Source: Lactobacillaceae bacterium (GTDB taxonomy: Bacteria > Bacillota > Bacilli > Lactobacillales > Lactobacillaceae). Taken from it: a DNA stretch of 60,094 nucleotides. The position numbers and the translations under genes are program-made. The first letter of the stretch is position 1. Each line of letters opens with the position of its first letter. Positions 54,328 to 59,834 of the stretch are shown piece after piece. Where the stretch lies: positions 70,846 to 130,939 of the forward strand of contig JAITQG010000072.1 in assembly GCA_031289015.1 (NCBI GenBank). Reading direction: 5' to 3'. The notes below the pieces were generated by a model. The model saw nothing but the letters and a program-made list of their open reading frames with translations, did no database searches and was not told the origin of the DNA.

Positions 54328-54399
54328 TGCTCAGTAGTTCAGCGGTAGAATCGCGCACTGTTAATGCGTTGGTCGCTGGTTCGAATCCAGCCTGAGCAG
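54328..54399 (+). tRNA. tRNA-Asn (anticodon GTT)
   Basis: A 72 nt cloverleaf has acceptor TGCTCAG/CTGAGCA with discriminator G, anticodon loop CTGTTAA and T-loop TTCGAATC. CCA is not encoded. It is transcribed opposite to the neighbouring genes, from its own promoter and terminator. Confidence 0.95.
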
Positions 54400-54407
54400 C
54401 TAATCAA

Positions 54408-54451
54408 AATCCGGCATGCCAATGTATATAATTGGTATGCCGGATTTTTTG
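54408..54451 (+). terminator. Terminator of tRNA-Asn
   Basis: AATCCGGCATGCCAAT and ATTGGTATGCCGGATT form a 16 bp stem (one wobble) followed by TTTTTTG. Confidence 0.9.
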
Positions 54452-54539
54452 TTTTATTCACAATTTAGCGCCGATTTATACAAATCTCAGCCAAGCAGAA
54501 TTCGTCTCAATATACAACATTGAATAATACTTTTTGTTA

Positions 54540-54581
54540 GTGGGTAATCAATAACTGTAGTGAAGTGGCTTGATTACCCAC
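54540..54581. other. Perfect 12 bp inverted repeat upstream of the small ORF
   Basis: GTGGGTAATCAA and TTGATTACCCAC are separated by 18 bp, just before a -35-like ATGACA. There is no T-run. It is an operator candidate or an RNA hairpin. Confidence 0.6.
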
Positions 54582-54686
54582 CTAGCTATGACAGGTTCTA
54601 TTAGGGTATATACTAAGGCTCTCCAACCAATCTAAGACGATCGGGGGCGACTAGATGATACTAAATAGTGAGGGGTACTGCGGGAG

Positions 54687-54788
54687 GTGATAGAATTTGC
54701 GATCGCATTTTCTATCATTCTTTACGCCATTGGGAAGTTAGCTATTAATTTAGCGCTTGCTTATGCCGTAAAGAAAAAAGCTGACTAA
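54687..54788 (+). CDS. Small hydrophobic peptide, candidate type I toxin
   Basis: This 33-residue ORF starts with GTG and reads (M)IEFAIAFSIILYAIGKLA then INLALAYAVKKKAD. It is a single membrane helix with a basic tail, the general build of type I toxins. The GTG lies inside a perfect GGGAGGTGAT ribosome-binding sequence; a GAGGGG lies 11 bases upstream, so the true start needs checking. A TATACT at 54609-54614 with ATGACA 15 bp upstream could drive it. A convergent promoter and terminator suggest an antisense RNA over its 3' end. I do not recognise the peptide as a named family. Confidence 0.45.
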   Translation: MIEFAIAFSIILYAIGKLAINLALAYAVKKKAD

Positions 54789-54865
54789 TCATCAGCTTTC
54801 CACCCGTAGTATACCCTAAGACTTGTCGACGTCGAGGTCTAGCCACCTCGGCGTCTTTTTTGTAT
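54773..54865 (-). ncRNA. Candidate antisense RNA overlapping the small ORF 3' end
   Basis: A strong minus-strand promoter, TTGAAA (54895-54900), 17 bp, TATACT (54872-54877), points at the small ORF. A minus-strand terminator follows at 54777-54799 (AAAGCTGA/TCAGCTTT then T residues). The transcript would be about 90 nt and antisense to the last codons and 3' UTR of the small ORF. Alternatively these are only the terminator of the ABC exporter operon ending at 54911. Confidence 0.4.
54828..54861 (+). terminator. Terminator of the small-ORF transcript
   Basis: GACGTCGAGG and CCTCGGCGTC (one wobble) enclose 8 nt and are followed by six T on the plus strand. No T-run follows it on the minus strand. 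Confidence 0.75.
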
Positions 54866-54910
54866 GGTTTAAGTATATAACCAATGCAGCCAGATTTCAA
54901 CTCACATTCG

Positions 54911-56692
54911 TTATTCAAAGACCATTTGGTTCGTATACAACTCGTAATAGAAGCCTTTTTGTGCCAATAACTCTGCATGGCTGCCTTGCTCAATCACGTT
55001 TCCATTGCGCAACACCACAATCTTATCCGCATTCAAAATCGTCTTCAAGCGATGTGCAATCACAAAGCTGGTCCGCCCGCTGATGACATTATCCATCGCT
55101 TTTTGAATCTTGGCTTCAGTCACCGTGTCCACGTTTGACGTTGCTTCGTCTAAAATCAACAAATCTGGATTCGTCAAAATCGTCCGCGCAATCGACAATA
55201 ATTGCTTTTGTCCTGTTGAGAAGCTTGAATTTTCATCGTCCACCAACGTGTCGTACTTGTCCGGCAACGTCATTATGAAGTCGTGAATATTAGCTTGCTT
55301 GGCGGCCGTTTCTAATTCTCCCGTCGTTGCTTCAGGCTTACCAAAGACGATGTTATCGCGCACTGTGCCGCTAAACAACACCGAATCTTGTAAGACGATC
55401 CCGACATGATCACGCAAACTTGTTAAATTCATGTCGCGCACGTCAACCCCGTCAAAGGTCACGGCGCCATCCGTCACGTCATAGAACCGGTTCAACAAAT
55501 TCATGACCGTGGTCTTACCAGAACCAGTTGGGCCCACCAAAGCAACCATTTGGCCCTTGTCGACTTCAATATCAATCCCATGCAAAATTTCATGGCCTGC
55601 GTTGTAGCCAAAGTGGACATTTTCTAACTTGATATTAGATTGCACGCCATTAAACATCACGCCGTCTTGGGCATTGATTTCATTTTCTTGTTCAAAGACT
55701 TCTTGCAACCGGTTGGCACCAGTCACGGCCAATTGGAGCATGTTGTACGTTGAGGTGATTTGGGTGATCGGTTGATAGTATTGTTGTGAGAAGCTCACGA
55801 ACATCACAATCAAGCCCAGCGCAGTCGTACGCGCCAAGTCACCATTCAAAGCAAGGTAGCCCCCAAAGAAGATGACAATCGCCGTGTTAACCAAGCTCAT
55901 CCCCATCATCAAGGGGAACAAAATCCCTGACCAAACTTGCCCCTTAAAGGCCGCTTGCCGAACTTTGGCATTGTGTTCGCTAAATTGCGCGATTGATTCT
56001 GCCTGCAAACCATTGGTAATAATGACTTTTTCACCGTTAATTTGTTCGTTGATGTACCCGTTCATATGCCCGACTTCAGCTTGTTGCCGATCAACATACT
56101 TACGCGCATGCACAATCACAAAGCCAGCAATCAACAAAGCAACTGGGGTTGAGGCAATCGTCACCCAGGCCATTTCAGTATTTTGCTTAAACATCATGAT
56201 GATAATCCCAATCATCAACGCTAATTGCGTAAACAATTGGAAGATTGCTTGGTTCATCGCATTAAAAATATTATCCAAATCTGACGTAAAGCGTGACAGG
56301 ATTTCGCCGTCTTGATGGGCATCAAAATAGCGGATCGTCATCTTTTGCATCTTACCAAACAAGCCACGTCGCATATCATTGGTTGAATGCGCAGAAATGA
56401 TTGATTGCATGAGACTCATAATCAAAAGCCCCACCGCCATCATCAAAACAAATAAAAAGAAATGCCACAGTGCCCCATGAAAATCGGTTAATGAAGCTTT
56501 ACTAGCGGTCATTGGATTGAGTTTCACCATTAAATACTTGGCCAATTCTTGAATCGAATTCCCCATGTAAACTGGCGCCTTAACTTGTAGCCACGTCGAA
56601 AGAATCGTGAAGATGACCACAATCGTCAATCCGAGCTTAAAGCGCTTGAAGTAATAAGCGAAAAATTTAATTGCATTCCAAAATTCGGTCAT
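54911..56692 (-). CDS. Heterodimeric ABC exporter, canonical-site subunit (LmrD-like)
   Basis: This is a 593-residue half-transporter with six membrane helices (about 1-330) followed by a nucleotide-binding domain. Walker A is GPTGSGKTT, Walker [13 protein letters not shown] with the catalytic Glu, and the switch His is in [10 protein letters not shown]. The signature is FSTGQKQLL, one residue off the usual SGGQ. In heterodimeric exporters this pattern marks the half that supplies the catalytic Walker B and the weak signature. Overlaps its partner by four bases (ATGA). Substrate unknown; relatives export drugs or lipids. Confidence 0.92.
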
Positions 56693-58413
56693 TTCCCAAT
56701 TACCTCCTGCGCTTTTTGTGTTGCATAAATCTCACGGTAAATGTCTGAACTTTGCACCAATTCGGCGTGCGTTCCGGCAGCTACAAGTTTTCCTTCATCC
56801 ATAACCAAGATGCGATCGGCATGAATCACCGATGAAATCTTTTCGGCAATAATCAAGGTCGTCGTATCAGCCAACTCGTGATCGAGGGCTTCTTGCACCA
56901 ACTTTTCAGATTTGGCATCCAAGGCTGACGTTGAATCATCTAAAATCAAAACTTGTGGATTTCCAACAACCCCACGGGCAATTGACAACCGTTGCTTTTG
57001 GCCACCCGAGAAATTAGCCGAGCGCTCTTCAACGACGTGTTCATACGTATCATCATAGCGTTCTACGAATTCAGCTGCCTGAGCAATTCGAGCCGCGCGT
57101 TGCATATCGGCTTGACTGGCATCAGCTTTACCTTGGCGCAAATTCATCGCGATTTGGCCAGAGAACAAAGTTGCCCGTTGCAAAACAAACGAAACGGCTT
57201 TGCGCAACGATTTTTCATTGACCTCATGCAAATCAACCCCACCGACTTTGACTGTACCTTCAGTCGGATCAAACAAACGTGGAATCAATTGCGCTAAGGT
57301 CGTTTTACCAGACCCCGTCGCCCCAACAATTCCAATCATCTCACCAGCAGCCACATTAAAGGTAATGTCTTGGAGGGTTGGCTTATCATCACCTGGATAG
57401 GTAAATGAAACATGGTCAAACTCGATTGAACCGGCCAAATTTTGTTCAGCAATTCCATCTTGATACGTTAATGAAGGCACTGTATCGGTAACTTCCTTAA
57501 TCCGCTTTAACGAAACCATCCCACGCGCCGCAAAAGTCATCATCATCCCACCGATAATGATGGCCATCATGATTTGCATCAAATAATTGATAAATGAGGT
57601 CACAGCCGCAATCCAAGTTGGATGGGCGCCAGCATTTTGTCCGACGTACCAAATCGATATCGCGATGGCCCCTTGCCCGATAAAGGTAAAGAAGGGCATC
57701 AAGATTGAGAAGAGGTATCCAATTTGCAAATTAACATGGTTGAGTTGATCAGAAGCGACATTAAACTTCTTTTCTTCATTGCGTTCTTGGTTAAATGACT
57801 TAACCACGCGCACCCCTTGCAGATTTTCTTTGGCAATGTTGTTCGTCTTTTCAATTAAGCCTTGAATCATGCCGAATTTTGGTCCCATTTGACTAAATAG
57901 CACCACGACAATCAGCAAAACCACCACAACCATCGCCATAATTACCCACCAAAGTTCTGGTAAGGTCATCATCGCCAAAATAAAGGCGCCGACAAACAAA
58001 ATTGGCATCCGAATTAGCGCTTGGAAGCCCATCATGACCAAATTTTGCACTTGTTGGACGTCATTAGTCATCCGCACGACTAAATTCCCAACCGAAAACT
58101 TTTCAATGTCACCATATGAGAAGCTTTGAATCTTACGATAAGTCGCTTCACGGATATCAGCCGCCACATTTTGCGCTAACTTAGCGGAGAAAACGGCGTT
58201 AACAGCCCCAGCCACCAAACCAATCAGCGCAATGATAATCAATTGCACCCCTAGTTCATTCACTTTGGCCATTTTGTCATCCGAAATCGCTTGGATGACA
58301 TTTTGGAGCAATTTGGGTTGCCATAGAGCAGATCCGGCCATGAGGGCTACGGATATGATGGCAAAGAACATATCTAATTTGTATTTTTTTAGATATGGCA
58401 TTAAGACATTCAT
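56689..58413 (-). CDS. Heterodimeric ABC exporter, degenerate-site subunit (LmrC-like)
   Basis: This is a 574-residue half-transporter with six membrane helices and a nucleotide-binding domain. Walker [10 protein letters not shown] and signature FSGGQKQRL are canonical, but Walker B ends in Asp ([12 protein letters not shown]). The switch His is replaced as well ([11 protein letters not shown]). These two changes predict one consensus and one degenerate ATP site in the dimer, as in LmrCD and TM287/288. It is first of the pair, divergent from the sdpR-like gene 209 bp away. Confidence 0.93.
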
Positions 58414-59621: not shown

Positions 59622-59834
59622 ATGTTTTGAAATTCGGCGGGTTTTGGGGCTCTCCGGCAAAGATAAATTTGTGGGAAACGGGTGGCGCAAATCGGGGAAA
59701 TGGTCCGCGAGCGGCCCATTGCCACGCCCGTTGTAATCCTGAATGTCGGGCGGCAGTTCCCCCGATTCGGCCACCCTTGCTTTTCCCACAAATTGATCGC
59801 TCCGAGCCCCAAAACCCGCCGAATTTTAAAACAT
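59622..59834. repeat. 213 bp GC-rich imperfect palindrome
   Basis: The outer 31 bp arms, 59622-59652 and 59804-59834, match with one wobble (ATGTTTTGAAATTCGG...). Inner blocks AATTTGTGGGAAA, GGGTGGC and AATCGGGG repeat in the same order on both arms. Composition is richer in G+C than the neighbours. Short ORFs on both strands here are mirror images of each other, so I treat them as non-coding. The 59539-60094 stretch holds this element, a second repeat and a terminal hairpin, and no convincing gene. Confidence 0.85.

What the first reader, a model, noticed from the sequence alone, without database searches (positions are those of the whole stretch)
54540..54900. Candidate type I toxin-antitoxin module on the plus strand
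Seen: a 33-codon hydrophobic ORF with a KKK tail (54687-54788) behind an excellent ribosome-binding sequence, ending at a strong plus-strand terminator (54828-54861). A near-consensus convergent promoter (TTGAAA-17-TATACT) and a minus-strand terminator (54777-54799) predict an antisense RNA of about 90 nt over its 3' end. Known: Fst/RNAII and BsrG/SR4 have this converging architecture. Inferred: this is an undescribed type I toxin family. The peptide does not look like Fst or TxpA, and its GTG start sits inside the Shine-Dalgarno sequence.
Basis: partly seen in the sequence, partly recalled or inferred. Interest (0 to 1): 0.8.

Follow-up and report, generated by a model that had tools for sequence, protein, structure and literature searches.

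The report
New type I toxin-antitoxin family, lactobacilli
A tiny unannotated gene in a Weissella genome belongs to a recurring module in lactic acid bacteria whose layout looks like a membrane-peptide toxin held in check by a small antisense RNA, with a peptide unlike the known families.

Summary
The 33-codon ORF (54687-54788), plus-strand terminator, convergent promoter and minus-strand terminator are present. In the window alone they barely exceed chance; relatives settle it. A peptide profile hits 11 of 28 genomes of the genus and 35 of 397 of the family, in 8 of 40 genera. A Lactobacillus member hits 21 plasmid records; the 20 rows listed name no gene there. Over 53 loci the frame is under purifying selection (pN/pS 0.37). 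A minus-strand terminator is found at the stop codon in 53 (overlapping it in 51). An antisense promoter-like site lies 71-95 nt beyond the stop in 48. Both hairpins show compensatory changes in 21 non-Weissella loci. A locus-specific direct repeat links the sequence upstream of a leader ribosome-binding site with the antisense-covered 3' end (z 16.4, 0 of 5000 permutations). The peptide matches no family in Pfam, NCBIfam, PHROGs, PADLOC or PDB at curated or significant levels. Best reading: a new family of type I toxin-antitoxin modules with an Fst-like antisense mechanism. Toxicity and transcription are untested.

The parts
54687..54788 (+). toxin-like ORF, 33 codons, GTG start: one hydrophobic segment, KKKAD tail
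   Evidence: profile hits in 35 of 397 family genomes, own included; pN/pS 0.37
54655..54690 (+). leader ORF MILNSEGYCGR, its TGA overlapping the GTG toxin start; SD-like GGGGG at 54643-54647
   Evidence: sequence; a leader ATG with SD-like word in 47 of 53 loci against a mean of 7.0 of 53 in shuffles
54632..54638 (+). 5' copy of the direct repeat (CTAAGAC), upstream of the leader SD
   Evidence: 7 nt, not distinctive for this locus alone
54816..54822 (+). 3' copy of the direct repeat (CTAAGAC), inside the antisense-covered region
54800..54816 (+). 3' UTR segment predicted to pair with the SD region (about 54670-54687)
   Evidence: folds; toxin SD unpaired probability 0.16-0.18 in six transcript forms
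54828..54861 (+). terminator of the toxin mRNA
   Evidence: plus terminator in 52 of 53 loci; covariation in non-Weissella relatives
54872..54900 (-). antisense promoter TTGAAA-17-TATACT; start predicted near 54865
54770..54866 (-). predicted antisense (antitoxin) RNA, about 95 nt
   Evidence: inferred from promoter and terminator; not observed
54777..54799 (-). antisense terminator hairpin across the toxin stop codon; the KKK codons supply its U run
   Evidence: 53 of 53 loci, overlapping the stop in 51; covariation in relatives
54540..54581 (+). 12-bp perfect hairpin, possibly the 5' end structure of the toxin mRNA
   Evidence: transcript start not established

Best explanation
A type I toxin-antitoxin module of a peptide family without a name in the libraries searched. 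The plus strand makes a structured mRNA for a 33-residue one-helix membrane peptide that is presumably toxic in excess. A convergent antisense RNA of about 95 nt, ended by a hairpin across the toxin stop codon, overlaps the 3' end of that mRNA. Through a locus-specific repeat it can also pair with the mRNA just upstream of the leader ribosome-binding site. Shown by comparison: the reading frame is selected as protein, both hairpins are maintained (with compensatory changes in the relatives aligned), an antisense promoter-like site is kept, and loci keep their own two repeat copies alike. Inferred: both RNAs are made; the antisense blocks the leader RBS and exposes the duplex to RNase III; toxin translation is coupled to the leader ORF because the toxin SD is buried in structure; the peptide harms the membrane; plasmid and viral-contig copies act in post-segregational killing.
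For: Peptide family. Purifying selection, other frames closed by stops in 52 and 47 of 53. Antisense terminator at the stop in 53 of 53 loci against a mean of 13.9 of 53 in shuffles. Covariation over 21 loci, 12 of 19 pairs changed on both sides, covariation score reached by 0 of 500 shuffles. Antisense promoter, mean score 12.7 against 10.3 in shuffles and 10.4 in other windows. Direct repeat z 16.4, 0 of 5000. The same kind of test is positive for Fst (z 9.0, in another pair of regions) and not for Hol_Tox (z -1.0 to 2.2 over five region pairs). Repeat copies in predicted unpaired stretches (mRNA 44 of 47, antisense 39 of 47 scored loci). Leader start with SD 47 of 53 against 7.0 shuffled. 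mRNA folds z -3.3 to -10.2 in the 20 loci tried of 53. Four copies within 1.8 kb in G016.
Against: No transcript or toxicity datum was seen. For this locus alone the repeat is 7 nt and 8 of 41 swapped 3' ends do as well, and its antisense copy is no more open than the rest of the antisense (0.43 against 0.42). The toxin promoter is unclear. The segment that buries the SD lies in the antisense-covered 3' UTR, so antisense binding there would by itself free the SD; repression must then work by the repeat or by RNase III. One control pair of regions also exceeds chance (z 3.4). The number of further pair types is not above shuffles (21 against 20.3), and no Weissella copy was in that alignment. 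17 of 28 genus genomes have no match. The leader's frame relative to the toxin is not conserved (24, 15 and 8 loci in three frames).
Confidence: 0.86

Rival explanations
1. A divergent branch of the BsrE/BsrH-type holin-like toxin (Hol_Tox, RatA/rli28) systems rather than a separate family; it would then still be a type I module.
For: Same gross layout by eye in 20 Hol_Tox loci: leader SD plus ATG, hydrophobic ORF with a lysine tail, hairpin after the stop. Copies in G016 match Rfam rli28 below its cut-off (36.4 against 45 bits); the A6 subfamily gives 58% over 20 columns against Hol_Tox.
Against: 0 of 26 members hit Hol_Tox up to E 1; A5 against Hol_Tox only 26% over 9 columns; 20 Hol_Tox loci show no clear direct repeat; no Rfam sRNA hit in the window at the gathering cut-offs.
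Confidence: 0.3
2. A small membrane protein with a physiological role, regulated by antisense RNA but not a toxin.
For: Sequence cannot show toxicity; 2 of 26 members weakly touch the YtzI small-protein model (best E 0.0086, 15.4 bits against a cut-off of 33).
Against: Patchy distribution, tandem copies, plasmid and viral-contig copies, locus-specific repeats of the kind Fst loci have.
Confidence: 0.1
3. Chance ORF between two operon terminators; the minus-strand hairpin only ends the ABC operon.
For: In the window alone the signals are near chance, and the ABC operon does run towards it.
Against: The comparative evidence.
Confidence: 0.02

Closest known systems
par/Fst-RNAII of pAD1 and Lpt of L. 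rhamnosus (Fst/Ldr family)
   Same: Short one-helix peptide, converging RNAs, locus-specific direct repeats (DRa/DRb) through which the antisense can reach the toxin's translation start region
   Different: Peptide lacks the PXXXG motif and the tryptophan and is not homologous by profile. Repeats sit upstream of the leader SD and between the two 3' hairpins; in 15 Fst loci they sit at the toxin start and 40-110 nt beyond the stop. The antisense terminator lies across the stop codon.
TxpA/RatA, BsrG/SR4, BsrE/SR5, BsrH (Hol_Tox; Listeria rli28)
   Different: No significant peptide similarity for the main family; 20 Hol_Tox loci show no clear direct repeat
hok/mok/sok (recalled, apart from what PMC7472228 says of hok mRNA folding)
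   Same: Leader ORF overlapping the toxin start, SD buried by long-range pairing, possible coupling
   Different: Unrelated peptide as far as recalled, Gram-positive hosts, antisense at the 3' end; coupling not shown

Membership tests
Type I toxin-antitoxin (general) | Small hydrophobic peptide gene under selection | tested here: met
Type I toxin-antitoxin (general) | Antisense RNA gene overlapping the toxin gene | tested here: inconclusive
   promoter-like site and terminator conserved; the RNA itself not observed
Type I toxin-antitoxin (general) | Peptide toxic, antisense neutralises it | not testable with these tools
   needs expression assays
Fst/Ldr (par) | PXXXG motif and conserved W in the peptide (PMC7472228, section read) | tested here: not met
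   absent from the window peptide; hhalign 0.7%
Fst/Ldr (par) | Direct repeats linking the translation start region with the antisense region | tested here: met
   z 16.4 for the family, at other positions than in Fst loci; weak for the window copy alone
Hol_Tox / BsrE-BsrH / TxpA | Match to the Pfam Hol_Tox profile | tested here: not met
   0 of 26 members up to E 1; profile-profile 26%; the A6 subfamily at 58% is inconclusive
Hol_Tox / BsrE-BsrH / TxpA | 3'-overlapping antisense RNA | tested here: inconclusive
   its signals are met; the RNA was not observed
hok/mok/sok | Toxin translation coupled to an overlapping leader ORF | tested here: inconclusive
   leader start in 47 of 53 loci, stop exactly overlapping a toxin start in 7; frame not conserved

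The most novel reading that the evidence does not exclude
A type I toxin family of Gram-positive bacteria that joins three logics known separately: Fst-like repeats through which a 3' antisense RNA reaches the ribosome-binding site, a 3'-overlapping duplex as in TxpA/RatA, and hok/mok-like coupling, in which the antisense shuts off a leader ORF whose translation alone can open the buried toxin start. In some copies (4 of 53 loci) the toxin frame has no ATG, GTG or TTG in reach of its core and would depend on AUU or other rare initiation, or on coupling.
Probability: 0.35. Interest if true: 0.72.

Novelty: new variant of a known kind. Interest (0 to 1): 0.58.

Why it matters
Type I modules are easily missed because their peptides are too short for routine annotation; the 20 plasmid rows listed name no gene there (that gene table is incomplete by the tool's own account). 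A module spread over Weissella, Lactobacillus, Ligilactobacillus and other Lactobacillaceae, on chromosomes, plasmids and viral contigs, would add a family to a short list. The locus-specific repeats give natural variants to test how antisense specificity between co-resident copies is set. Several species are food or gut bacteria, where plasmid stability and growth arrest matter.

Tried and rejected
Rfam at its own cut-offs gave only tRNAs in the window. Pfam, NCBIfam, PHROGs, PADLOC and PDB sequence searches gave no family; the weak hits whose cut-offs were shown (DUF5411, DUF2851, DUF7262, YtzI) lie below them. The phage-record search gave no match, but with one blended query, so it is a weak negative; viral contigs gave 12 loci in 11 contigs. 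The window peptide itself hits 7 plasmid records only at E 0.01 to 9. Looking for the toxin promoter gave no consistent answer: the best window candidate is ATGACA-15-TATACT at 54588-54614, while in many Lactobacillus copies the best site lies further upstream, before a 5' hairpin. A programmed frameshift from leader to toxin was considered and set aside because the needed direction differs between loci. Rows dropped: L024 (broken copy) and L064 (5' part not recognisable) before the counts, leaving 53 of 55 stored loci; L068b (tandem duplicate) before the repeat test; 10 near-duplicates by clustering; L056 and L059 from the 23 listed before the alignment. In one search the hairpin of L018 and L054 lies about 10 nt beyond the stop; L018 is a decayed copy, has no plus terminator, and its antisense hit may be chance; the plus terminator scored for L049 lies at +107. 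L051's 'leader' is the toxin start itself. Matches first seen were not analysed. No structure prediction was run. Papers: PMC7472228 outline and two sections read; PMC9484302, PMC6064168, PMC5608710 and PMC6562991 passages; PMC8003834 outline and abstract; others search listings only. That I found no description of this family rests on the eight searches in an open-access library. An earlier count gave the 5' repeat as 54634-54640; the right place is 54632-54638.

Full report
What is in the window. The interval 54540-54900 lies between a tRNA gene with its terminator (54328-54448) and the 3' end of two ABC-transporter-like ORFs on the minus strand (54911-58413; named by eye). It holds, on the plus strand, a 12-bp perfect hairpin (54540-54551/54570-54581), a leader ORF (54655-54690, MILNSEGYCGR), and a 33-codon GTG ORF (54687-54788) overlapping the leader by GTGA. 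A strong terminator follows (54828-54861). On the minus strand there is a promoter-like site (TTGAAA-17-TATACT, 54900-54872) and a hairpin (54777-54799) with a U run. The predicted antisense RNA is about 95 nt. Judged by consensus scans alone none of this exceeds chance clearly, but the plus strand folds far better than shuffles (z -8.3, 0 of 100).

The peptide family. The first DNA search, of 100 genomes with the own one included, found matches in 4. Two of these, L003 and L004, carried recognisable relatives. A four-row profile found 11 of 28 genomes of the genus at E 0.01. A 19-row profile found 35 of 397 genomes of the family at E 0.001, in 8 of 40 genera. A 26-row profile found 20 of 395 genomes of the order, 7 of 80 genera; all 20 belong to the same family. 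These counts include the window's own genome. With a Lactobacillus member as query 21 plasmid records match at E up to 1 (14 Lactobacillus, 7 Ligilactobacillus), and the 20 rows shown have no gene annotated there; with the window peptide 7 records match at E 0.01 to 9. Twelve loci lie in 11 viral contigs. Copies may be tandem: four within 1.8 kb in G016.

It is a protein. Over 251 pairs of moderate divergence pN/pS is 0.37, and differences fall 1296/1066/2918 on codon positions 1/2/3. The other two frames have ratios of 1.06 and 1.35 and contain stops in 52 and 47 of 53 loci. The peptide has one hydrophobic stretch and a net charge of +2.

Two converging RNAs. The loci were found by the peptide alone, so the RNA features are largely independent evidence. 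A minus-strand terminator was found at the stop codon in 53 of 53 loci, against a mean of 13.9 (at most 20) of 53 in shuffled sequence and 4 to 18 in shifted windows. It overlaps the stop codon in 51 and lies about 10 nt beyond it in two, L018 (decayed, perhaps chance) and L054. A plus terminator was found in 52 of 53. In an alignment of 21 loci from outside Weissella, 12 of 19 pairs of the two hairpins changed on both sides (3 of 8 in the antisense terminator, 9 of 11 in the plus terminator): 52 cells against 15.0 in shuffles, 0 of 500 as high. The number of further pair types is not above shuffles (21 against 20.3), and sliding the partners destroys the pairing. The lysine codons double as the U run of the antisense terminator. 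The best antisense promoter-like site lies 71 to 95 nt beyond the stop in 48 of 53 loci, mean score 12.7 against 10.3 in shuffles and 10.4 in other windows.

Locus-specific direct repeats. A word just upstream of the leader SD recurs between the two 3' hairpins: for example ACTTAATTCTTG in L007, ATTCTAAGTTACG in L044, CTAAGAC here. The word differs between groups of loci but agrees within each. With 42 dereplicated loci the own-pair score is 8.93 against 5.64 for permuted pairs (z 16.4, 0 of 5000); the own 3' end is best or tied in 25 of 42. Four control pairs of regions give z -1.4, 0.7, 1.7 and 3.4; the last, with the same 5' region and a more distant 3' region, is itself above chance. For this window the repeat is only 7 nt, and 8 of 41 swapped ends score as high. 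As controls, 15 dereplicated of 18 Fst loci show repeats around the toxin start and 40-110 nt beyond the stop (z 9.0), though not in the region pair used for our family (z -1.8). Twenty Hol_Tox loci show none there (z -0.4) and -1.0 to 2.2 in the other four region pairs. The repeats lie in predicted open stretches of the mRNA (44 of 47 scored loci) and of the antisense (39 of 47). The antisense RNA thus carries a tag complementary to the mRNA next to the ribosome-binding site.

Translation. A leader ATG with an SD-like word precedes the toxin in 47 of 53 loci, in frame 2, 1 or 0 relative to the toxin in 24, 15 and 8; in 7 its stop overlaps a toxin start exactly. Shuffles give a mean of 7.0 of 53 and shifted windows 4 to 10; with GGAGG alone the count is 39 of 53 against 0 to 4. 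In the window the toxin SD and GTG are paired in the six transcript forms tried (unpaired probability 0.16-0.18 and 0.09-0.13), while the leader start is more open (0.5-0.7) and the 5' repeat is open (0.88). In the 20 loci folded of 53, z lies between -3.3 and -10.2 (40 shuffles each). The simplest working model is that ribosomes on the leader open the toxin start, and that the antisense, seated on the repeat, blocks the leader. This is inferred. A difficulty is that the 3' segment pairing with the SD lies within the antisense-covered region, so duplex formation there alone would free the SD; RNase III decay of the duplex, as described for txpA/RatA (PMC6562991 passages), would resolve it.

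Relation to known systems. The Fst signature (PMC7472228, section read) is absent and profile comparison is null (0.7%). Against Hol_Tox the main family gives 26% over 9 columns. The G016/G025 subfamily, which joins the main family at 97.6%, gives 58% over 20 columns, and G016 copies match the Listeria rli28 RNA model below its cut-off (36.4 against 45 bits). rli28 overlaps a BsrH-like putative toxin gene beside RatA (PMC9484302 passages). A common origin with Hol_Tox is therefore possible but unproven. BsrE/BsrH-like and Lpt/Fst systems are already known in Lactobacillus (PMC6562991, PMC5608710 passages); by the tests above this peptide is neither.

Verdict. A real, conserved, unannotated module; [quoted passage not shown] What remains to be shown is that the RNAs are made, that the peptide is toxic and that the antisense neutralises it.

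Noticed in passing
L067, L070, L130-L139: In these copies (Ligilactobacillus is a guess from the plasmid hits) the toxin frame has no ATG, GTG or TTG near its core; in L067 and L070 an in-frame ATT lies about 7 nt after GAGG/GGAGG (by eye). L011 and L055 also lack such a start. Initiation would be at AUU or by coupling.
   Followed up: partly
L002 1-250, L005 1500-1700, L006 1-250 (G009): Terminator sequence 75-80% like the window's stands behind a different basic-tailed ORF (KKKRKR...), at or near contig ends: possibly a further peptide type on a repeated element.
   Followed up: no
L013 738-1102 and 1501-1599: The W. paramesenteroides copy lies about 400 nt downstream of the tmRNA gene; the window copy lies downstream of a tRNA gene.
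   Followed up: no
L071: Beside the two copies in W. muntiaci a third stretch keeps an antisense-type terminator and 3' end but no recognisable ORF.
   Followed up: no
59622-59834: Long inverted repeat (31-nt arms, 97% complementary) near the window end, with overlapping open frames on both strands.
   Followed up: no
54462-54471 and 54747-54756: 10-nt direct repeat AATTTAGCGC between the tRNA-side spacer and the toxin ORF; may be chance.
   Followed up: no
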